Made by a program: the position numbers and the translations under genes
NCBI GenBank assembly: GCA_021776235.1
Contig: JAJFGG010000096.1
Location: forward strand, 1-64,000
DNA: 64,000 bases
Origin: Alphaproteobacteria bacterium
Lineage (GTDB): Bacteria; Pseudomonadota; Alphaproteobacteria; GCA-2731375
Direction: 5' to 3'
Part shown: positions 1,427 through 20,626 of the stretch, in pieces
Layout of the letters: the number at the start of each line of letters is the position of its first letter
Numbering within the stretch: the stretch's first letter is position 1
Notes under the pieces: generated by a model
Databases searched by the model: none
The model's input: the letters and a program-made list of their open reading frames with translations, nothing else
What the model was told of the DNA's origin: nothing

Positions 1427-2968
1427 TAAAAAGCCGGAGCGCAAACAGGGCTCCGGGGCCTGGGCGCGCTGGGAGAGGGCCCGTTCCAGGGCCTGGATCA
1501 GCCGGGGCCGGGTCTCCCGCGGTTCGATGATATCGTCGATCTTGACCTGCTCGGCGGCCGGGAAGGCGCCGCACAGGGCGCCCAGTTCCGCTTCCAGGCG
1601 GGCCTGTTCGGCGGCCGGGTCGTCGGCCGCCTGCAGCACCCCGCGATAGGCGGCCTGGATGCCGCTGTCCAGGGGAATGGCGTTGAAATCGGCGCTGGGC
1701 CAGGCCAGGGCCGTGGACTGCCCCGCCCCCAGCCCGCCCATGGCGGCGGCGCCATAGCCGAAGCCCTTGTGCACGGTCAGGCACAACAGGGGCACCCGGG
1801 CAAAGGCGAATGAGTGCGCGATGGCCATGCCGGCGCGCAGGGCGCCTTCCTTCTCGGACTGCGGGCCGGTCATGACGCCGGGGGTATCCATCAGAAAGAC
1901 GATAGGCAGGTGAAAGGCATTGCACAGATCCATGAAATGGCGGTGCTTGGCGCCGGCGGCCGCCGTGATGGCGCCGGCCATGACCTTGGGCTGGTTGGCG
2001 ATGACGCCGACGGCGTGGCCGTTCAGGCGGGCCAGGCCGGTGATCATCATCTTGGCGTAATCGGGCTTGATGGGGAAAAAGCTGCCCCGGTCCACGACCC
2101 GGTCGACGATCTTCATCATGTCATAGGGCCGGCGCCGGTTGGCGGGCAGGATGGCGGCCAGATCGTCGTCGCGGCGCTCCGGGCTGTCTTCGGGCGCCAT
2201 GTATGGCGGATATTGATAGGCGCTGGTGGGCATATAGGAAAGATAGCGGCGCAGCTGGGCAATGGCGTCGCGGTCGTCCGTGGCCGGGTTGTCGCCGACG
2301 CCCGAGATGCGGCAATGCAGATCGGCGCCGCCAAGTTCCTCTTTGCTGACATCCTCGCCGGTGGCGACCTTGACCAGGGGCGGCCCGCCGGCGGCCAGCA
2401 TGGCGGTGCCTTCGACCATGACGATGAATTCCATCATCGACGCCAGCAAAGAGCTGTCCCCCGCGGTGGGGCCCATGACGCCCGCCACCTGGGGCGTGAT
2501 GCCGGACAGCCGGGCCACCGCCATGAAATGGTGCATGGGCGCCAGGCCCTCGCCGATGTATTCATCGGTCCGCGCGCCGGCGCCGTCGAACAGCCAGACG
2601 ATGGGCAGCTTGTCGCGCTGGGCCAGTTCGATCATGCGGTTTTTCTTGTTGAAATTGTTGATGCCCAAAGAACCGCCCAGCACCGTGAAGTCCTCGGCGA
2701 TCACGCCTGCCGGCCGGCCCTCGATTTTGCCGAAGCCGGTGACCACGCCGTCGGCCGGGGTGTGCTTGTCCGGAATGGTGGTGACCGGGGTGTGCACATG
2801 GCTGGCCAGCTGGCCAATTTCCTCGAAGCTGTCCCCGTCGAACAGCAGATCGACCCGCTGCCGCGCCGTCAGCTTGCCCTGGTTATGCTGGCGCGCCACC
2901 CGTTCGGCGCCGCCCAGTTCCAGGCTGGCGGCCCGGCGTTGCCGCAGTTCATCGATCAGATCCTTCAT
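1421..2968 (-). CDS. acyl-CoA carboxylase carboxyltransferase subunit (propionyl-CoA carboxylase beta-like)
   Basis: 515 aa; carboxyltransferase family features (ARQRVDLLFDGDSFEE, PTAGDSSLLASMMEF, FLMDTPGVMTGPQSEKEGALRAGM, GAAAMGGLG). Confidence 0.92.
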   Translation of the reverse strand: MKDLIDELRQRRAASLELGGAERVARQHNQGKLTARQRVDLLFDGDSFEEIGQLASHVHTPVTTIPDKHTPADGVVTGFGKIEGRPAGVIAEDFTVLGGSLGINNFNKKNRMIELAQRDKLPIVWLFDGAGARTDEYIGEGLAPMHHFMAVARLSGITPQVAGVMGPTAGDSSLLASMMEFIVMVEGTAMLAAGGPPLVKVATGEDVSKEELGGADLHCRISGVGDNPATDDRDAIAQLRRYLSYMPTSAYQYPPYMAPEDSPERRDDDLAAILPANRRRPYDMMKIVDRVVDRGSFFPIKPDYAKMMITGLARLNGHAVGVIANQPKVMAGAITAAAGAKHRHFMDLCNAFHLPIVFLMDTPGVMTGPQSEKEGALRAGMAIAHSFAFARVPLLCLTVHKGFGYGAAAMGGLGAGQSTALAWPSADFNAIPLDSGIQAAYRGVLQAADDPAAEQARLEAELGALCGAFPAAEQVKIDDIIEPRETRPRLIQALERALSQRAQAPEPCLRSGFLP

Positions 2969-3076
2969 ACGCTCCCACCCACGCTTACTTTTTATGCCTT
3001 CCGCCCATGGTGCCCGCCCGACCGGCCGGAGGCAAGGCTAACGAAAGGATGCCGTCCGGGGGCGCCCTGGGGTACC

Positions 3077-4711
3077 ATGCGTTGCGATACGGCGGAGCGT
3101 ACAGCGGTGGCGACGATGCAGCAGGATTTACCGGAACGGGTCGGCGTGGCCATTGTGGGGGCCGGGCCGGTGGGGCTCATGGCGGCCAATCTGCTGGGCA
3201 CCTATGGCGTCCGCTGCCTGCTCATCGAGCGCAACGGCGCCACCATGGACATCCCCAGGGCCATCGCCCTGGATGACGAGGGTGCGCGCACCCTGCAGGC
3301 GGCCGGTCTGGACCGGGACTTCATGGCGGGAACGGTGCCGGCGGGCGGAGCGCGGTACTACGACCACCAGGGCCGGGCCTTTGCCGAAGTGGGCGCGCCG
3401 GCGCCGGAATTCGGCTTCCCCAGGCGCAATTATTTCTTTCAGCCGGAGCTGGAGCGGGCCCTGGCCCAGGGCCTGCAGCGGTTCGATCATGTCAAACTGG
3501 CGTTCGGCACAGAGCTGGCGGATTTCAGCGCCGACGATGACGGCGTGAGCCTGAACCTGGCGGGCGGCGGCCGGGTCCGGGCTGACTACCTGCTGGCCGC
3601 CGACGGCGCCCGCAGCGCCATCCGCCAGGCCCTGGGGATCGAAATGCAGGGCGATACCTATCCCCAGGACTGGCTGATCGTCGATACCGAGAACGACCCG
3701 GATCAAGAGCCCGTGTCGAAGTTCCATTGCCGCAGCGACCGGCCCTTTGTCTCGATCCCCGCGCCCCGGGGCGGGCGGCGCTATGAATTCCAGCTGCAGC
3801 CGGGGGAACTGCCCGCCGATATGGTGGCGCCGGACCGGGTGCGGGCCTTTCTGGCGCCCTGGCGCAGCCTGGGGGACAGGGACCTGACCCGGATCGCCGT
3901 CTATACCTTCGAGGCGCGGATCGCGGCGCGGTTCTCCGACGGCCGGGTCTTCCTGGCCGGCGACGCGGCCCACCTGACGCCGCCCTTCGCCGGCCAGGGG
4001 ATGAATTCCGGCCTGCGCGATGCCCATAACCTGGCCTGGAAACTGGCCGCGGTGCTGGGCGGCCAGGCCGGCCCGGCCTTGCTGGACAGCTATGACCGGG
4101 AGCGCCGGGGCCCGGCCTGGGCCATGGTGCAGCTGGCCGTCGCCATGGGCGAAATCATCATGCCTCAGGCCCGGGAGGATATTGCCTTCCGCCAGGGCAT
4201 CCTGCGCCAGTTCGAACGCTTTCCCCAGGCCCGGGATTTCATCGTCAACATGAAGTTCAAGCCGCGCCCGCGCTATGAGGTGGGCGCCTTCGTGGATCTG
4301 CACGGGCAAAGCTTTGCCGGCTCCCTGGTCGGCGCCATGTTGCCCCAGGTGGAGCTGGAGCCGGACAACAGCGATCATCCGCGTCTGGATGACGCCCTGG
4401 GTTGCGGTTTTGCCCTGCTGGCCCAGGCGCCGGATACGGCCGAATTCCTGGCCCGGGAAGGCGGGAGCCTGTGGCCTGAATTGACGCCGGCAAAGGTTTT
4501 CTTGAGCAAATGGGCCGGCGCCGTGCCGGACGGTGTTACACGGCTGACGCCCAGGCCGGGCCCGGCCCTGGTGGCGACCCGGGCGCATCGGGACCAGATC
4601 CTGCTGCTGCGGCCCGACCGCTATGTGGCGGCGGCGTTCTGGCCCGGGGACGCCTCGGCCGCCGTGGCCGCCTTCCGGGCTGAGCTTTCGGCCTGCCATG
4701 GCGCCGCATGA
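3077..4711 (+). CDS. FAD-dependent aromatic monooxygenase (MhpA/PheA-TfdB-like)
   Basis: GxGxxG FAD motif VAIVGAGPVGLMAANLLGTYGV and second FAD motif GRVFLAGDAAHLTPPFAGQGMNSGLRDAHNLAWKL. The ORF is open from 1814 but the domain starts at ~3077/3116; the upstream part is antisense to the carboxyltransferase gene. Confidence 0.9.
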   Translation: MRCDTAERTAVATMQQDLPERVGVAIVGAGPVGLMAANLLGTYGVRCLLIERNGATMDIPRAIALDDEGARTLQAAGLDRDFMAGTVPAGGARYYDHQGRAFAEVGAPAPEFGFPRRNYFFQPELERALAQGLQRFDHVKLAFGTELADFSADDDGVSLNLAGGGRVRADYLLAADGARSAIRQALGIEMQGDTYPQDWLIVDTENDPDQEPVSKFHCRSDRPFVSIPAPRGGRRYEFQLQPGELPADMVAPDRVRAFLAPWRSLGDRDLTRIAVYTFEARIAARFSDGRVFLAGDAAHLTPPFAGQGMNSGLRDAHNLAWKLAAVLGGQAGPALLDSYDRERRGPAWAMVQLAVAMGEIIMPQAREDIAFRQGILRQFERFPQARDFIVNMKFKPRPRYEVGAFVDLHGQSFAGSLVGAMLPQVELEPDNSDHPRLDDALGCGFALLAQAPDTAEFLAREGGSLWPELTPAKVFLSKWAGAVPDGVTRLTPRPGPALVATRAHRDQILLLRPDRYVAAAFWPGDASAAVAAFRAELSACHGAA

Positions 4712-4772
4712 GAACCGGCTTCAGTCACTATCCTGTGAATACGGCCGCACAGCCCGCAACCTTGCGCCATAG

Positions 4773-4786
4773 GTAATCCGGATTAC
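4773..4786. promoter_or_regulatory. 14-bp perfect palindrome GTAATCCGGATTAC upstream of the small secreted protein gene
   Basis: Read directly; ~70 bp upstream of the 4856 ATG. Function unknown. Confidence 0.3.
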
Positions 4787-4855
4787 ATTAGTCCCATAGA
4801 CTGGGGCTCACCCGGCGAATGTCGGTTAAACAAGCGAATACCGGGAGGGATCTCC

Positions 4856-5170
4856 ATGCGCTATTTGATATGTATCGCCCTGGCACTATTGGGCTTCAGC
4901 GGCCTTGCCATGGCCAGGCCGCACAGTTGTGACAAGCAAGTGATGGCGAAGCTCACGCAGTTGGGGGTTGCGGCGTCACAGATCAAGACAAAATCCTTTA
5001 TTGAGGTCAGGGATGGCAGCATCGGCGCTCGCTTGATCGGTTATGAAGCCTGGATCGAGCTTGACCACTGCCGAGGCAACGTGGTGCTGAATATGAGCCC
5101 GGAATGTTCGATCCAGCAGGCCTATACCAAGGGCACCTGCAAAATCGAGGGCCTAAAAAGCTACCGCTGA
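4856..5170 (+). CDS. small secreted cysteine-containing protein, tandem paralogue 1
   Basis: 104 aa with signal peptide MRYLICIALALLGFSGLAMA; RBS GGGAGGGATC; paralogous to 5350..5664. Confidence 0.75.
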   Translation: MRYLICIALALLGFSGLAMARPHSCDKQVMAKLTQLGVAASQIKTKSFIEVRDGSIGARLIGYEAWIELDHCRGNVVLNMSPECSIQQAYTKGTCKIEGLKSYR

Positions 5171-5349
5171 AACGCCGCTCCCGCTCCCGTTCCCGTCCGC
5201 GTTCGATCGCAACGGGTCTTGACGCGAACTGGCACAGAGCCTCTCTGTTGCCCCAGCCTTGCCTTGCGGAAGATTCGAACTATGTAGAGCCGTTACAGGC
5301 TATTCTGGGGACTATCGGTTAATCAGGCGAATGCCAGGAGGGATCACGA

Positions 5350-5664
5350 ATGCGGTTGTTGCTACTTATCGCCCTCGCACTATTGGGCTTCGGCGGCCCC
5401 GCCCTGGCCGCGCCGCACCGTTGCGACGAGCAGGCGAAAGCGAAGATCGCGCAATTGGGTGTGGCAGTCTCGCAAATCAGGAAACTTTCCTTTGTCGATG
5501 TCAGAGGGGATGACCGTGCCAGACGATTGCAGGGTTATGAAGCCTGGGTCGGTCTGGAACAGTGCCAGGGCAGCGTGGTGATAAATATGTCCCTGCAATG
5601 TGATGTCCGAGATGCCTATACCCGGGGCGCCTGCAAATTTGAGGGCCTGAAAAGCTACCGCTGA
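5350..5664 (+). CDS. small secreted cysteine-containing protein, tandem paralogue 2
   Basis: 104 aa; conserved Cys positions and shared C-terminus EGLKSYR with 4856..5170; upstream leader also similar (TCGGTTAAnCAnGCGAATnCCnGGAGGGATC). Confidence 0.75.
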   Translation: MRLLLLIALALLGFGGPALAAPHRCDEQAKAKIAQLGVAVSQIRKLSFVDVRGDDRARRLQGYEAWVGLEQCQGSVVINMSLQCDVRDAYTRGACKFEGLKSYR

Positions 5665-5720
5665 AACGCCAGGCCCTTCTGCGTCCGACTTTGCATGGCC
5701 CCTTGCCATGCTCTCAAATG

Positions 5721-6003
5721 GGAACTAATACCACATTGCGCTGATAGGGACCCATATAGATCGTCTCCGCGCGCCCTCGGGTAGGAGAGAAGGGGCAGGC
5801 GATGTGGGACATCGTCAAGCCTTCTCGACACCATCCGAGGGCGCGCGGAGGCGACCAAATAGGCGCATTTCGGAAGCTTTCGGATGGCGTCGCGCACGCC
5901 TGACGATGCCCCGCATCGCTGCGGCGCACGCTCCTACCCGAAAGCTCCCGAAATGCGTCTCTATGGGTTCCTATCAGCGCAATGTGGTATAATTCTTAGT
6001 TCC
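5721..6003. repeat. compound inverted-repeat element of two structured units in opposite orientation (MITE-like or structured RNA/DNA element)
   Basis: Ends GGAACTAA(n)TACCACATTGCGCTGATAGGGACCCATA and its inverted copy TATGGGTTCCTATCAGCGCAATGTGGTATAATTCTTAGTTCC. Internal hairpins: 5762-5780/5835-5853 (19 bp) and 5861-5883/5938-5960 (23 bp), each enclosing a 54-nt loop with a 6-bp inner hairpin (5800-5814; 5904-5918). Confidence 0.85.
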
Positions 6004-6040
6004 TATGGGATCACCCAGGACACCAGGGGATGGCACGGCG

Positions 6041-6433
6041 ATGTATACGGCAACGACGCGGGATATTACGGTGCGGGTGCAGCCGCAATTCCTGGCCGAA
6101 CAGTCGGACCCGGCGACGGACCAGTATTTCTGGCTGTATTCCATCACCATCGAAAACGGCGGCGACGAGACGGTGCAGTTGTTGAACCGGCATTGGATCA
6201 TCACCAATGCCCTGGGTCATGTAGAGGAAGTGCAGGGCCCCGGCGTGGTTGGCGAACAGCCCATACTGGCGCCCGGCGAAAGCTTTGAATACACCTCCGG
6301 CTGTCCCCTGAAGACCCCGTCGGGCATCATGGCCGGCACTTACGAAATGGCCGCCGGCGACGGCCCCCTGTTCGACATCGAGATCCCGGCCTTTTCCCTG
6401 GACAGTCCCTATCAGCCGCGGCAGATGAATTAG
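6041..6433 (+). CDS. apaG: ApaG-family protein
   Basis: MYTATTRDITVRVQPQFLAEQSDP...YSITIENGGDETVQLLNRHWIITNALG...GVVGEQPILAPGESFEYTSGCPLKTPSGIMAGTYEM, recognisable ApaG. The in-frame upstream ATG at 6005 lies at the element boundary. Confidence 0.93.
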   Translation: MYTATTRDITVRVQPQFLAEQSDPATDQYFWLYSITIENGGDETVQLLNRHWIITNALGHVEEVQGPGVVGEQPILAPGESFEYTSGCPLKTPSGIMAGTYEMAAGDGPLFDIEIPAFSLDSPYQPRQMN

Positions 6434-6482
6434 CTTTTTTCGCTCACGCTGGTGCGCGAAGCGCCGGGCCGTGGCCGCCGCC

Positions 6483-6586
6483 AATAAAGGGACACCCATT
6501 AAAGGGACACAATACTTATCTCGGCGTCATCGTAGTACGAATTCGCCAAAACGTTATGTGAGATAAGTATAGTGTCCCTTTAATGG
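6483..6586. repeat. palindromic element with 27-nt inverted arms (REP/RAYT-type-like hairpin)
   Basis: CCATTAAAGGGACACAATACTTATCTC (6496-6522) versus GAGATAAGTATAGTGTCCCTTTAATGG (6560-6586), 26/27 complementary, 37-nt spacer. An extra direct copy AATAAAGGGACAC precedes it at 6483. Confidence 0.75.
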
Positions 6587-6617
6587 CGGCAACGCCCGTG
6601 TGGTTTTCAGCAAACCG

Positions 6618-6947
6618 TTAATCCGGCTTGACCGTCTGGATGGCTTCGAAGCCTTCGAACTTGGGCGGGCCCAGATACAGGCTTTGCCGCGCCCCGCCGT
6701 CCCGGGCGGCATTGGCGTGGGCCTGGCGGAAGGCGTCCGATTTGGTCCAGGCCTCGAAATCGCCATGGCTTTGCCAACAGGTGTGCGAGGCATAGAGGGT
6801 GTGGTCCTCGGCCTCCGGGCCCCGCAAAAGATGGAATTCCATGAAGCCGGGGACCTTTCCCAGGTGGGTTTCCCGCTCGGCCCAGAGGCGTTCGAAATCC
6901 CCTTCGGCGCCTTTGGCCACGCGAAACCGGTTCATGGCGATATACAT
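6618..6947 (-). CDS. antibiotic biosynthesis monooxygenase (ABM) / heme-degrading monooxygenase-like protein
   Basis: 109 aa; MYIAMNRFRVAKGAEGDFERLWAERETHLGKVPGFMEFHLLRGP...HTCWQSHGDFEAWTKSDAFRQAH, typical of ABM/HmoA-like proteins. Confidence 0.8.
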   Translation of the reverse strand: MYIAMNRFRVAKGAEGDFERLWAERETHLGKVPGFMEFHLLRGPEAEDHTLYASHTCWQSHGDFEAWTKSDAFRQAHANAARDGGARQSLYLGPPKFEGFEAIQTVKPD

Positions 6948-6957
6948 GGCGGGCGCG

Positions 6958-8196
6958 TTACCAGGCGACGGGCAGGGTGGCCAGGCCGCGCAGGGTAAAG
7001 GTCAGGCGCCAGTCCGGGTCGTCCGAGTTGGCCAGGCGCAGGTTCGGCAGGCGCTGGATCAGGGTGGTAAAGGCGATCTCGGCCTCGATCCGGGCCAGGG
7101 GCGCACCGATGCAATGGTGGATGCCGCCGCCGAACGAGGTCGGGCGCACGTCCTCCCGGTCGATCTTGAAGGTCTCCGGATCCTCATAGCGTTCGGGATC
7201 CCGGTTGGCGGCGCCCAGCAGGTTCAATATGGGCTCGCCGGCCGGCACGGTGACGCCGCCTATCTCCACGTCCTCCATGGCCACCCGGCCGGTCATCTGG
7301 ACCGAGCTGTCAAAACGCAGCATCTCTTCCACCGCGCCGCTGACCAGGGAGGGGTCGGCCTTCAGCTTTTCCCACTCTTCGGGATAGGTCAGCAGGGCCA
7401 GCAGGCCATTGCCCAACAGGTTCACCGTGGTTTCGTGCCCGGCTCCGAACAGCAGCATGATGTTGGCGGTCAGTTCCTCATCGCTCAACTTGTCGCCGCT
7501 CTCCGCCGCCTGCAGCAGCTCGGTGGTGATGTCGTCGCCGGGTTCCCGGCGCCGGCGTTCGAACAGGCTCCTGAAATAGGCCGCCTGTTCCAGATGGCCC
7601 TTGGTGATCTCCGCCAGTTCATCCGGGGTCATGGGCGTGGGATCGATCAGCCGGCCGGCCGTTCGCGAGCCCTCGAAGAACTGTTGCCGTTCGTCCAGGG
7701 GAATCCCCAGCATGTCGCAGATGACGTGCACGGGCAGGGGATGGGCGAAATCGGGGATGAAATCCATCTCGCCATGCGCCTGGCCATCCGCCTGGATCTT
7801 GTCCAGGCTGTCATCGACCAGTTGCTGAATACGGGGCCGCAGGGCCTTCAGATGCCGGGGCGTGAAGGCACGCGCCACCAGGCCGCGCAGGCGGCCGTGA
7901 TCGGGCGGATCCATGACCAGCATCCAGTGCCGCATGGCGGCATAGACCGGCTCTTTCCAGATGTCCGGGCCATGCACTTTCTCGGTGCGGGCAACGTAGC
8001 CTTTGCCAAAGCGCTTGTCGCGCAGGATCTCGGTCACGTCTTCGTAGCGCGAGGCCACCCAGAAACCCATATCGGTCCGGTGAATGGGGGCCGTTGCCCG
8101 CAGCTGACGGAAGGCGGGATAGGGATTGCGCAGAAAATCCGGTGAAAAGGGATTGAATATTGGCGCCTCGGGGGCGTCGGCTGGTTGTTCACTCAT
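6958..8196 (-). CDS. cytochrome P450
   Basis: 412 aa; I-helix LLFGAGHETTVNL, ExxR region and haem-binding loop TSFGGGIHHCIGAPLARIEAEI. Confidence 0.95.
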   Translation of the reverse strand: MSEQPADAPEAPIFNPFSPDFLRNPYPAFRQLRATAPIHRTDMGFWVASRYEDVTEILRDKRFGKGYVARTEKVHGPDIWKEPVYAAMRHWMLVMDPPDHGRLRGLVARAFTPRHLKALRPRIQQLVDDSLDKIQADGQAHGEMDFIPDFAHPLPVHVICDMLGIPLDERQQFFEGSRTAGRLIDPTPMTPDELAEITKGHLEQAAYFRSLFERRRREPGDDITTELLQAAESGDKLSDEELTANIMLLFGAGHETTVNLLGNGLLALLTYPEEWEKLKADPSLVSGAVEEMLRFDSSVQMTGRVAMEDVEIGGVTVPAGEPILNLLGAANRDPERYEDPETFKIDREDVRPTSFGGGIHHCIGAPLARIEAEIAFTTLIQRLPNLRLANSDDPDWRLTFTLRGLATLPVAW

Positions 8197-8234
8197 GCTA
8201 TCTCTACCTGGCTTCAGTCCAATTCATTGATCTT

Positions 8235-8456
8235 CTAGCCGTCCATGACGGCAACGTCCTGTCCTTCGCTCACGGCATCGCCTTCCTGGACCAGAATTTC
8301 TTTCAGGGTGCCGCCCGAGGGGGCCACCACGGGAATTTCCATCTTCATGGATTCCAATACGATAATTGTGTCTTCTTCCTCCAGGGCATCGCCAATACTG
8401 GCTGTGATGGCCCAAACCTTGCCGGTGATCTCTGACTGAACGCGAATATCCGCCAC
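8235..8456 (-). CDS. stand-alone biotinyl/lipoyl-attachment domain protein
   Basis: 73 aa; biotinylation motif VLESMKMEIPVVAPSGGTL and hammerhead fold pattern. Confidence 0.92.
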   Translation of the reverse strand: MADIRVQSEITGKVWAITASIGDALEEEDTIIVLESMKMEIPVVAPSGGTLKEILVQEGDAVSEGQDVAVMDG

Positions 8457-14138: not shown

Positions 14139-15752
14139 GTGGAACGGGACCTGCGAATTCTGGCCGACATGATCGCCGAGAAGGCCGAGGCCCAGCCGGA
14201 TCTGGACGTGGTGACCTTCGAAGGCGGCGGCCGTTTCCAGGATGAAATCCGTACCTACGGCGCGTTATGGGATAACGGCAACCGGGTGGCCGCCGAATTG
14301 ATCGCCCGCGGCATGGAACCCGGCGACCGCTTCGCGCTGCTGATGCGCAATCACCCGGAATTCATCGACGTAATGGTCGGCGCCTCCATTTCCGCCTGTG
14401 TTTTCGTGCCCATAGACCCGCGCAGCCGGGGCCGCAAGCTGGCGTACACTCTGACCAACTCCGACTGCCGAGGTGTCATCTGTGCCGACTATTGCCTTGA
14501 TCAGGTGGTGGAGGTCCGGGCGCAACTGCCCGGTCTGGAATGGATCCTGGTTCTGGCCAGCGAAGACGGCGCCGGCCAGCACCAGATGGCGCAGGTTACC
14601 GGCGCCGAGGACATGGCATGTATCTATGACCGCCCGGCGCTGGCCATGGACAGCCGGCTGAAAAGCCCGTTGGACCCGCTGGAGATCGTTTAGACCTCGG
14701 GCACCACCGGTGATCCCAAAGGCGTGGTTTTTCAGAATGCCCGATACGGCAGCCCGGTGTTGCGCGCGATCATGCCGCTGGAAGCCGGCGACCGGCCCTA
14801 TACGGGCCTCTCGCTGACCCATGGCAACGCCCAGATGATTACCCTCGCAACCTCGTTGAGCATGGGCCTGCGTTGCGTCATCAGCCGCCGCTTCACCAAG
14901 TCCCGGCTGTGGGATATCACCCGGCAATACGGCAATACGGTGTTCAATCTGCTGGGCGGCATGACGGCCGCGATCTATGCCGAACCGGAACGGGACAACG
15001 ATGGCGATAATCCGGTGCGCTTCGTCATGAGCGCCGGCATGCCGGCGACGATCTGGGAGAAATTCGAGCGCCGGTTCAATCTTGACGTTTTTGAATTCTA
15101 TGGCGCGGTCGAGGGCGGCCTGGCCTACAAGCCCATCGGCGTTGGCCCCGTGGGCAGCTTTGGCAAGGCGCCCAAGGGCCTGGATTTGAAAGTGGTCGAT
15201 GAAGACGGCAAGGAATGCCCGCCGGGCGTTCTGGGTGAGTTGATATCACGGCCCGTCAAGGGACCGGCGCCGGAAGTGGAGTATTTCAAGAACGCCGACG
15301 CCTCGGAGAAAAAGACCGAGGGCGGCTGGCTGCGTAGCGGCGATATCGGCCATGCCGATGCGGATGGCTGGCTGTTTTTCGACTACCGCAAGGGCGGCGG
15401 TATCCGCCACAATGGCGACTTCGTAAATCCAGGCTTTGTCGAGCAGGCCATCGCCGAGCACCCGGCCGTCGGCGACGTCTTCGTTTATGGCATTCCGGCG
15501 GCCTCGGGCGCGCCGGGCGAAAAGGATATCGTCGCGGCCGTCGTCGCAGCCACGATGGCGGCGGAATTTGACGCGCCGTCGGTGTTTGCGGCCTGCCGCC
15601 GCGAGTTGGAAGCCAATTTCGTGCCAGGCTATCTGCAACTGGTCGCAGAAATTCCCAAGACCGCGTCGGAAAAGCCGCAGGAGAGGTTTCTGCTGGAAAG
15701 CTTCGCCGTGGATGCCGCGAATGTATATCGCGAGGAGCGCGGCCGGTCGTAG
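14139..15752 (+). pseudogene. AMP-dependent acyl-CoA synthetase/ligase (ANL superfamily) interrupted by one in-frame TAG at 14691-14693
   Basis: ORFs 14139..14693 and 14724..15752 are in the same frame; the junction reads ...PLDPLEIV*TSGTTGDPKGVVFQNARYG, with TAG exactly where the Tyr of the YTSGTTGxPKG motif is expected. Confidence 0.88.
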
Positions 15753-18309: not shown

Positions 18310-19101
18310 CTATTCACCGGTGTAGTTCGGAGCCCGCTTTTCAACAAAGGCGCTGACCGCTTCCTGGCGGTCCCGCGTGGAATTGGAGCTGATTTCGTAG
18401 GCGATTGCAGCATCCATCACCTTGTTGGCGATATCGCGTAGTACCAGATTGACCGCCGTTTTGGTCCAGCGCACGGCCCACCGCGGATTGGCGGTGATTT
18501 TGCCGACCATTTCATCAACCTTGGCATCCAGTTCATCCGCCGGTACGGCATAGTTGATCAGCCCCATGGCGGCGGCCTCTGAGGCGCGTAACATGTCGCC
18601 GGTCAACAGCATCTCCTTGGCCCGGGCAAAGCCGATCAGTTGCGGCCAGATGACCGCACCGCCATCGCCCGCGACCAGGCCGACCTTGACGTGCGGATCG
18701 CCGATCAAGGCCCTTTCATCGGCGATGATGACATCGCACAGCAGGGCGATGGAGGCGCCAAGACCCGCGGCGGCGCCGTTCAGGCGGCAAATGATGGGTT
18801 TCTCCAATTCCAGCAGGCCGTTGACGATGCGTTTGGCATCGGTGGTTATGCCGCGGAATTTGGCCGGATCGTCGATCATTTCCTGAAACCAGTCCATATC
18901 GCCGCCGGCGCAAAAGGCCCGGCCCGCGCCGGTCAGGACAATCAGGTCGCTGTCATCGTCGGACTGCACGGCGAAAAAGACCTGTGCCAGTTCCTCGTGC
19001 AATTCGAAGTCGACGGCGTTCATGGGGCCGGCGTCGATGGTGACCCACAGCACCCGGGCGCGCCGCTCAAACGTGAGGCGTTGGTATCTGTCAAAATCCA
19101 T
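18310..19101 (-). CDS. enoyl-CoA hydratase/isomerase family protein
   Basis: 263 aa; LIVLTGAGRAFCAGGDMDWFQEM and KPIICRLNGAAAGLGASIALLCDVIIADERA (crotonase fold). Confidence 0.92.
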   Translation of the reverse strand: MDFDRYQRLTFERRARVLWVTIDAGPMNAVDFELHEELAQVFFAVQSDDDSDLIVLTGAGRAFCAGGDMDWFQEMIDDPAKFRGITTDAKRIVNGLLELEKPIICRLNGAAAGLGASIALLCDVIIADERALIGDPHVKVGLVAGDGGAVIWPQLIGFARAKEMLLTGDMLRASEAAAMGLINYAVPADELDAKVDEMVGKITANPRWAVRWTKTAVNLVLRDIANKVMDAAIAYEISSNSTRDRQEAVSAFVEKRAPNYTGE

Positions 19102-19214
19102 TATCTGCTCTCCTGCCGTGCGGCTTTAAACCTAGCCGCATCCCGCCATTTAGGAAACGTGACATAGTGACCCTGGCCGGCCGGAGCGTAGGGCGTTCGG
19201 ATTTGCAGGCCGGA

Positions 19215-20141
19215 CTATTTGGCAGTGGCCTTTGGCGGTGGTTTGCGCCAGGCGAGCTCTTCTGCCCGCACCCGTTCAAATTCGGCGGCAGACATCTGAG
19301 CGACATTGAAAAAATCGAGCTTCCAGTCTGGATTATCGCTCCATCGTTCTGGCAGCTGCACAGTGGTCCGCGGCCCCGGTGCGCCTTCCAGCAGGCGCAG
19401 GGCAAGTTCCAACGTGGCGGCTTGGGACGCCTGGTCGTCCGGCCGTCCCGCCGGACAGCCCAGGGGAAAATCGCAAAACAGAAAACGCGGTACGCCGCAA
19501 TACTCGACGATATCCTTGGCGCAGCCCATGACGACGGTGGCAATGCCATTTGCTTCCAGGTAGTTGGCGATCAGACTCACGGTCTGATGGCAGACGGGTC
19601 ATATGGCCGCCAGGAGCGCTATATCGGTTTGGTCCTCGCGCAGCCGGGCCAGCAGTTCCGGGGCGTCCTTCTTCATGCTCAGACGATGGCTGTAGCGGGT
19701 CGGTACGCTGTGAAAGCGCGGCGTCACCGCGCCGATCCGCCCCGCCGCCGCCGCGTCGGCCAGCGCCGCCAGCGGCATGAAGGCGCCCTGATCCGCCGCC
19801 TTGGTATGAGCGCGGTCGTAATGCAGGTGCGAAATGCCCAGTTCCGGGGGGTCGCAACTGGATGCGGAATAGATCTCGTGCAGTGCCGCCGCCGGGTTCA
19901 TCGCGGCGCCGGCGCCCTGAGCACCCTTGCCCGGCCGGATCGGTGAGGCGGTGGTGATGACCGTAAAGCTGATCTTGTCGAGCGGTTTGTCGAGCGTCGT
20001 AAACGGCACTTCGGCCAGGTGCGCCCATTCGTAAGGTTTCGGGTACCCCATCGCCAGGTAATAGTCCCGGCTTCGGTCAATATAGGGTACCGGAACGTCA
20101 TGCGCCGCCGCGAAACCCAAGCCTCTGCCCATCGCTGCCAT
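19215..20141 (-). CDS. glycine/sarcosine/betaine/proline reductase selenoprotein B (GrdB/PrdB)-like protein with putative Sec at in-frame TGA (19599-19601)
   Basis: ORFs 19599..20174 and 19215..19580 (minus) share a frame; readthrough gives ...TDIALLAAI-U-PVCHQTVSLIANYLEANGIATVVMGCAKDIVEYCGVPRFLFCDFPLGCPAGRPDD, a UxxC motif where homologues are expected to have CPVC. RBS GGAGG precedes ATG at 20141. Confidence 0.8.
19570..19601 (-). promoter_or_regulatory. putative bacterial SECIS hairpin immediately 3' of the UGA codon
   Basis: mRNA sense: UGA-CCCGUCUGCC-AUCAGAC-CGUGA-GUCUGAU; perfect 7-bp stem (19570-19576/19582-19588), 5-nt loop with G at position 2, stem starts 10 nt after UGA. Confidence 0.6.
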
Positions 20142-20236
20142 GCTGGTCTCCTCCGTGATCTTGGCGTTTTGCAAAGCCTAGCAGAATAAACCCGGCCTCG
20201 CCCGACCCCGTGCGAGCTCGCAGGGGTAATCGGAGG

Positions 20237-20626
20237 TCAGGCACCGTCCGGGGCCGGCCGTGGCCAGGCGGGGTCCTGGAAACATTGAATTTCAAGCTTG
20301 TATCCGTCCGGATCGCGCAGGAAGAAGTGATAGATGTTGAACTTCACGTTTTCACTGGGCGGCGCGTCGATCGCGGCCCCCTTGGCTTTCAGACGCCTGT
20401 ACCAGCCATCCACATCGTCACAGACCAGGGTCACGATGATGCCATCGGGCGTCGCCGAGCTTGACGGCCCGCATTCGCAGATGCCCAGGAAACCGTCCCG
20501 GCTGACCCTGAAGATTTGGCAAGCGCCCTGATCAAGTACCAGGGGCAGGCCGAGGACTTCCCGGTAGAAAGCGATGCTGCGTGCATAATTCACCGTATAG
20601 AGAAAGGTCACTTGCTGATCGAACAT
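20237..20626 (-). CDS. VOC/glyoxalase family protein
   Basis: 129 aa; QVTFLYTVNYARSIAFYREVLGLPLVLDQG...FFLRDPDGYKLEIQCFQDP. Confidence 0.88.
   Translation of the reverse strand: MFDQQVTFLYTVNYARSIAFYREVLGLPLVLDQGACQIFRVSRDGFLGICECGPSSSATPDGIIVTLVCDDVDGWYRRLKAKGAAIDAPPSENVKFNIYHFFLRDPDGYKLEIQCFQDPAWPRPAPDGA

What the first reader, a model, noticed from the sequence alone, without database searches (positions are those of the whole stretch)
19215..20141. Likely selenoprotein: GrdB/PrdB-like protein with in-frame UGA in a U-P-V-C-H-Q redox motif
Two same-frame minus-strand ORFs are separated only by TGA at 19599-19601. Readthrough gives a continuous ~308-aa protein with I-U-PVCHQTVSLIANYLEANGIATVV. 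A Sec in a UxxC motif matches GrdB/PrdB-type selenoprotein B chemistry (established family knowledge), and the flanking protein is well conserved-looking on both sides, arguing against a pseudogene. ORF callers would split it into two genes. The setting is an aerobic-looking catabolic cluster rather than a classical clostridial grd/prd operon, so its function may be a non-Stickland thiol/selenol redox role.
Basis: partly seen in the sequence, partly recalled or inferred. Interest (0 to 1): 0.85.

Follow-up and report, generated by a model that had tools for sequence, protein, structure and literature searches.

The report
Selenocysteine PrdB-like reductase, one of nine
This gene uses a 'stop' codon to insert selenocysteine into a relative of the bacterial D-proline reductase subunit PrdB, and the same uncultured alphaproteobacterium carries nine such selenium-dependent copies, a sizeable selenium investment in what look like pathways that break down coenzyme-A-bound compounds.

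Summary
In detail: one in-frame TGA (19599-19601, minus strand) splits a 308-codon gene (19215-20141). It is a genuine selenoprotein gene. Across 117 homologues the TGA column holds only TGA (58) or Cys codons (59). A SECIS hairpin starts about 11 nt after the UGA; its 5-bp core is intact in 51/55 Sec genes and 0/54 Cys genes, and the codons for an identical peptide differ accordingly. selA, selB and a selenocysteine-containing selD are in the genome. tRNA-Sec is missing from this draft assembly but present in all ten congeneric genomes. The protein belongs to the GrdB/PrdB superfamily but is not PrdB proper (67.9 bits against a cut-off of 300). New points: the genome holds nine such paralogues, all with UGA, and sister genomes hold 6-11 each. 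In 51 of about 77 relatives a class III CoA-transferase gene follows directly on the same strand. The window copy sits with a VOC protein, enoyl-CoA hydratase and acyl-CoA dehydrogenase. No pyruvoyl subunit (PrdA/GrdE) was found, though without a positive control. I propose a selenolate reductase acting on CoA-activated substrates; that step is inferred. PrdB-like marine selenoproteins have been known since 2005, so this is a new variant of a known kind.

The parts
19215..20141 (-). Sec-containing PrdB-like protein (308 aa; UGA read as Sec at residue 181)
19599..19601 (-). in-frame UGA (Sec) codon of the U-P-V-C motif
   Evidence: column is U or C only in 117 homologues
19570..19588 (-). SECIS hairpin: AUCAGAC / CGUGA loop / GUCUGAU, 7-bp stem in this gene
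   Evidence: core 5-bp stem in 51/55 Sec genes, 0/54 Cys genes
20149..20154 (-). ribosome-binding site GGAGGA upstream of the ATG
   Evidence: sequence
20237..20626 (-). VOC/glyoxalase-family protein, gene immediately upstream; conserved next to four close orthologues (L026, L027, L127, L128)
18310..19101 (-). enoyl-CoA hydratase/isomerase, next gene downstream
   Evidence: kept in L027, L128
17128..18297 (-). acyl-CoA dehydrogenase, second gene downstream
   Evidence: kept in L027, L128

Best explanation
The gene encodes a selenoprotein of the GrdB/PrdB superfamily. UGA at 19599-19601 is decoded as selenocysteine by SelA/SelB/SelD and a tRNA-Sec, directed by a hairpin that starts about 11 nt after the UGA (shown by comparison, about 0.97). 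The protein is one of nine Sec-containing paralogues in the genome (shown). Function is inferred: the U-P-V-C centre supplies a selenolate that attacks an activated carbon alpha to a carbonyl and is released by the neighbouring Cys as a selenenylsulfide, reduced in turn by cellular thiols, as proposed for GrdB/PrdB. Unlike those enzymes, the substrate carbonyl would be activated not by a pyruvoyl partner subunit but as a CoA thioester, made by the class III CoA-transferase encoded next to most family members and passed on to acyl-CoA dehydrogenase/enoyl-CoA hydratase. The nine copies would serve different substrates. The confidence given is for the whole statement, mechanism included.
For: Sec decoding: U/C-only column; Sec-specific hairpin with compensatory changes; selA-selB pair and UGA-containing selD; tRNA-Sec in 10/10 congeners, and co-occurrence of TGA-containing family members with strong tRNA-Sec hits over 61 genomes, 14/17 vs 3/44, p = 1.7e-8. 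Superfamily: all nine paralogues hit TIGR04483 best, E 1e-18 to 1e-40, and two pass PF07355. CoA link: CoA_transf_3 gene directly downstream on the same strand in 51 of about 77 relatives, against 1 hit in the rest of the flanks, and beside three of the nine own copies; acyl-CoA dehydrogenase and enoyl-CoA hydratase next to the window copy; methylmalonyl-CoA mutase and a CoA-transferase beside an orthologue. Precedent for a change of substrate: the GrdB/GrdE-like far operon proposed to cleave C-F in fluoroacetate (PMC10838667).
Against: No biochemical evidence was found for any member of this family. The window copy itself lacks the CoA-transferase neighbour, and its ECH/ACAD neighbours are absent beside two of four close orthologues. 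One own copy has UPLD instead of UPVC, so a resolving Cys is not universal. Some copies sit with amidases, amidohydrolases or a D-threonine-aldolase-like enzyme rather than CoA genes. The tRNA-Sec gene is not in this assembly. The absence of PrdA/GrdE could not be given a positive control.
Confidence: 0.4

Rival explanations
1. Same selenoprotein, but a general thiol/disulfide or peroxide-reducing protein: the UxxC centre works like a thioredoxin-type redox couple that protects or regenerates the neighbouring CoA-pathway enzymes, without being the substrate-converting step.
For: UxxC motif; Sec/Cys interchange, which is usual for thiol oxidoreductases; the 2026 review expects redox roles for most uncharacterised UxxC families (PMC13188914).
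Against: No thioredoxin-like fold match; many strictly conserved polar residues outside the motif (H105, D109, R110, K209, D210, E213) and specific operon partners point to a substrate-specific enzyme; one paralogue lacks the second Cys.
Confidence: 0.25
2. Same selenoprotein, acting as a true D-amino-acid or amine reductase (PrdB/GrdB chemistry on C-N bonds) with an unrecognised pyruvoyl or carbonyl partner encoded elsewhere.
For: PrdB is the best family hit for all nine; the C171 copy is next to an Amidohydro_3 enzyme and an Ala_racemase_N/D-ser_dehydrat protein, the kind of genes used for D-amino acids; amidases sit beside others.
Against: No PF09338 (PrdA/GrdE) hit in this genome or in 399 phylum members, though without a positive control; scores are well below the PrdB cut-off; the conserved partner is a CoA-transferase, not an amino-acid enzyme.
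Confidence: 0.25
3. The UGA is a real stop or a sequencing error and the gene is a broken pseudogene of a Cys protein.
For: The tRNA-Sec gene is absent from this assembly, and another gene in the window does carry a nonsense codon.
Against: 58 TGA homologues, none with another non-Cys codon; SECIS conserved only in the TGA group, p = 9e-27; SelD in the same genome also has UGA.
Confidence: 0.01

Closest known systems
PrdB, Sec-containing 26-kDa subunit of D-proline reductase (TIGR04483)
   Same: Best-scoring family for all nine paralogues (68-139 bits), alignable over most of the PrdB model, UxxC centre.
   Different: Far below the equivalog cut-off of 300; no PrdA partner found; operon with CoA-transferase/CoA-thioester enzymes; 250-310 aa, or 407-416 aa with an extra C-terminal part in two copies.
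GrdB/GrdF/GrdH selenoprotein B of glycine/sarcosine/betaine reductase (PF07355, TIGR01917/01918)
   Same: C-terminal region homologous, Sec in UxxC; two paralogues pass PF07355.
   Different: The window protein lacks the third Cys of the UxxCxxC described for GrdB and the GrdB N-terminal region; no GrdE found.
Marine 'proline reductase PrdB' selenoproteins of the Sargasso Sea and GOS metagenomes (PMC1088965, PMC2398784)
   Same: Sec in UxxC, PrdB-related, abundant in seawater (42 and 235 genes); probably includes this family.
   Different: In the passages read, those reports named the gene by homology to PrdB and gave no operon, paralogue expansion or host genome for it.
FarB/FarE fluoroacetate reductase operon of Cloacibacillus (PMC10838667)
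   Same: GrdB-like Sec protein in an expanded family (eight grdB in one genome) proposed to cleave a bond other than C-N.
   Different: Anaerobic Synergistota, has a GrdE-like partner and a radical SAM enzyme; no CoA-transferase in the reported operon.

Membership tests
Bacterial selenoprotein gene | in-frame UGA aligned with Cys codons in homologues | tested here: met
   58 TGA, 59 TGC/TGT, nothing else
Bacterial selenoprotein gene | SECIS hairpin just downstream of UGA | tested here: met
   5-bp core 51/55 Sec vs 0/54 Cys; Val GTG 46/46 vs 2/15 and Ser AGT 45/46 vs 0/15 within the same QTVSL peptide
Bacterial selenoprotein gene | host has selA, selB, selD | tested here: met
   selA 583 bits, selB 414 bits joined, adjacent on C166; selD 382 bits with UGA in HGGGUGSK
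Bacterial selenoprotein gene | host has tRNA-Sec (selC) | tested here: inconclusive
   Not found in the 174-contig G000 assembly: only Ser tRNAs reach the cut-off, no tRNA-Sec from patterns. Present in all 10 same-genus genomes at 66-73 bits, anticodon UCA
D-proline reductase PrdB (TIGR04483) | score above equivalog cut-off 300 | tested here: not met
   67.9 bits; paralogues 86-139
D-proline reductase PrdB / glycine reductase protein B | pyruvoyl-forming partner PrdA/GrdE (PF09338) | tested here: inconclusive
   No hit in G000 or 399 phylum members, but no positive control rang
GRDB (PF07355) | score above Pfam gathering cut-off 22 | tested here: not met
   11.8 bits for the window protein; two paralogues pass with 38.8 and 29.6
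GrdB | UxxCxxC motif | tested here: not met
   UPVCHQT: UxxC only; motif as given in PMC13188914
GrdB/PrdB superfamily | significant homology to the family models, with a UxxC centre | tested here: met
   TIGR04483 E 8.5e-19, GrdH 1.5e-7, GrdF 9e-7

The most novel reading that the evidence does not exclude
A group of PrdB-like selenoenzymes that work without a pyruvoyl subunit and reductively cleave a bond alpha (or beta) to the carbonyl of CoA-activated substrates handed over by a dedicated class III CoA-transferase, duplicated nine-fold in marine Alphaproteobacteria for different substrates.
Probability: 0.25. Interest if true: 0.8.

Novelty: new variant of a known kind. Interest (0 to 1): 0.5.

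Why it matters
PrdB-like selenoproteins are among the most abundant selenoprotein genes in seawater, yet they are named after a clostridial D-proline reductase whose partner was not detectable here. The results give a host lineage in which this family makes up most of the Sec genes found (6-11 copies per genome; selenoprotein-rich was defined as six or more genes, and the groups named as such were Deltaproteobacteria, Clostridia and Synergistetes), a clean SECIS signature, and an operon partner that turns 'what do marine PrdB selenoproteins do?' into a testable question with cultivable Cys-form hosts such as Bradyrhizobium. It also shows that standard ORF calling would split all nine genes.

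Tried and rejected
Rfam tRNA-Sec hits in G000 looked positive at first (49.3 and 47.3 bits) but are tRNA-Ser CGA and UGA. A selC nested in or after selB, as described for other Alphaproteobacteria (PMC8124441), was not found. The DNA around a sister genome's tRNA-Sec gene matched G000 contig C68, but no tRNA-Sec lies there. Folding energy alone did not separate Sec from Cys genes (p = 0.10); the specific stem and codons did. No solved structure by sequence or by fold: the AlphaFold model is confident (pLDDT 90.5) but no PDB match had E below 0.04. The long plus-strand ORF 19167-19946 is the antisense of this gene and I do not count it as a gene.

Full report
OBSERVATION. The minus strand of 19215-20141 reads ATG ... 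TGA ... TAG with a single in-frame TGA at 19599-19601; read through, it gives 308 aa with I-U-PVCHQTVSLIANYLEANGIATVV. A GGAGGA ribosome-binding site precedes the ATG. Homology runs unbroken across the TGA: 411 relatives were confirmed, the closest 87, 86 and 76% identical over nearly the whole length.

THE TGA IS A SELENOCYSTEINE CODON. (a) In 117 homologous sites the column holds TGA (58), TGC (46) or TGT (13) and nothing else. (b) Downstream of the UGA lies a hairpin CAGAC-CGUGA-GUCUG, extended to 7 bp in this gene. The 5-bp core is complete in 51 of 55 distinct Sec genes and 0 of 54 Cys genes. Compensatory changes occur (CAAAC/GUUUG; in the diverged copies, stems of other sequence around the same CGUG loop). 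Where the peptide QTVSL is identical, Val is GTG in 46/46 Sec and 2/15 Cys genes and Ser is AGT in 45/46 and 0/15, although AGT is rare in the window's genes (6 of 97 Ser codons) (Fisher p = 1.6e-11 and 2e-13, and 9e-27 for the stem; the sequences are related, so the p values overstate independence). Random synonymous recoding with local codon use gives the 6-bp stem in 1.7% of trials. Total folding energy alone does not discriminate. (c) The genome has selA and selB side by side on contig C166 and a selD with its own UGA in HGGGUGSK, whose downstream hairpin also has a loop starting CGUG.

tRNA-Sec. Only serine tRNAs reach the Rfam cut-off in this genome, and two pattern searches gave no tRNA-Sec, so selC appears to be missing from the 174-contig assembly. 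All ten same-genus genomes have it at 66-73 bits with anticodon UCA. Across 61 genomes, TGA-containing family members and strong tRNA-Sec hits co-occur: 14 of 17 versus 3 of 44, p = 1.7e-8. I conclude there is an assembly gap; this is inference.

NINE COPIES. The genome holds nine homologues, all with one TGA; the ten sister genomes hold 6-11 matches each, essentially all with TGA (the few exceptions are fragments). They form several groups: the window type (53-87% identity to it), a 42-50% group, a 31-36% group (one member UPLD instead of UPVC), and a long group of 407-416 aa. On a quick tree all deep groups are Sec and the Cys forms lie among relatives of the window type, with 5 changes in all; long branches make the details unsure. 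With selD this makes at least ten selenoprotein genes, above the threshold of six used for 'selenoprotein-rich' (PMC5029168).

FAMILY. All nine match PrdB (TIGR04483) best but at 68-139 bits against a cut-off of 300; GrdB-type models follow. PF07355 is passed by two paralogues, not by the window protein. No solved relative was found by sequence or fold, though the model is confident. The pyruvoyl subunit family PF09338 gave no hit, without a positive control.

NEIGHBOURHOOD. In relatives a CoA-transferase family III gene (PF02515) lies 0-2 kb downstream on the same strand in 51 of about 77 loci; only one other hit occurs in all remaining flanking DNA. The sample is rich in Bradyrhizobium, but loci of Acetobacteraceae, Rhodospirillaceae, Hyphomicrobiales and the window's own genus share the arrangement. 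Three own copies have such a gene beside them. The window copy instead sits in VOC - PrdB-like - enoyl-CoA hydratase - acyl-CoA dehydrogenase, kept in L027 and L128; L026 and L127 keep VOC but lack the last two. An orthologue, L028, neighbours a CoA-transferase, a B12-binding protein and methylmalonyl-CoA mutase. Other copies sit with amidases, amidohydrolases and a D-serine-dehydratase/threonine-aldolase-like enzyme.

MECHANISM (inferred). Shown by comparison: Sec at a UxxC centre, and kinship with GrdB/PrdB, enzymes in which a selenolate is thought to attack a carbon alpha to an activated carbonyl (established family knowledge; reviewed in PMC13188914, and PMC10838667). Inferred: here activation is by a CoA thioester supplied by the partner transferase, the product feeds acyl-CoA oxidation, and the Cys three residues on resolves the selenyl intermediate. 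The fluoroacetate-reducing GrdB-like operon suggests that the superfamily can change substrate (PMC10838667). A plain redox-guard role and a D-amino-acid reductase role remain open.

NOVELTY. PrdB-type UxxC selenoproteins in seawater were reported in 2005 and 2008 (PMC1088965, PMC2398784). What I did not find in the library searched is the nine-fold expansion in an alphaproteobacterial genus, the CoA-transferase operon, or any function (only open-licence papers were searchable).

Noticed in passing
window 14139-15752 (+), TAG at 14691-14693: An AMP-binding acyl-CoA ligase gene is interrupted by TAG at the Tyr of the IVYTSGTTG motif; a relative (L027) has a Tyr codon there. A nonsense mutation or sequencing error, not a Sec site.
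   Followed up: yes
L106 (G000:C38) 7674-8426 and 2850-3713: Two of the nine Sec paralogues sit about 4 kb apart on one contig with a CoA-transferase III and an acyl-CoA dehydrogenase; the second has UPLD, with no Cys at the usual place after the Sec. Two matches on one contig at similar spacing also occur in G006, G009 and G010.
   Followed up: partly
L013 (G000:C46:22266-23192): SelD is itself a selenoprotein (HGGGUGSK); its hairpin after the UGA has a loop starting CGUG like that of the PrdB-like genes.
   Followed up: partly
G000:C25:131418-132335 (L014): A second SelD-like domain without TGA lies in a 760-codon open frame, probably a fused protein.
   Followed up: no
L107 (G000:C171) 4711-7259: A Sec paralogue is followed by an Amidohydro_3 protein and an Ala_racemase_N/D-ser_dehydrat protein, suggesting a D-amino-acid-related pathway for that copy.
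   Followed up: partly
L111 8300-9520 and L112 7633-8880: Two Sec paralogues carry a C-terminal extension of roughly 150-180 aa with no Pfam match.
   Followed up: partly
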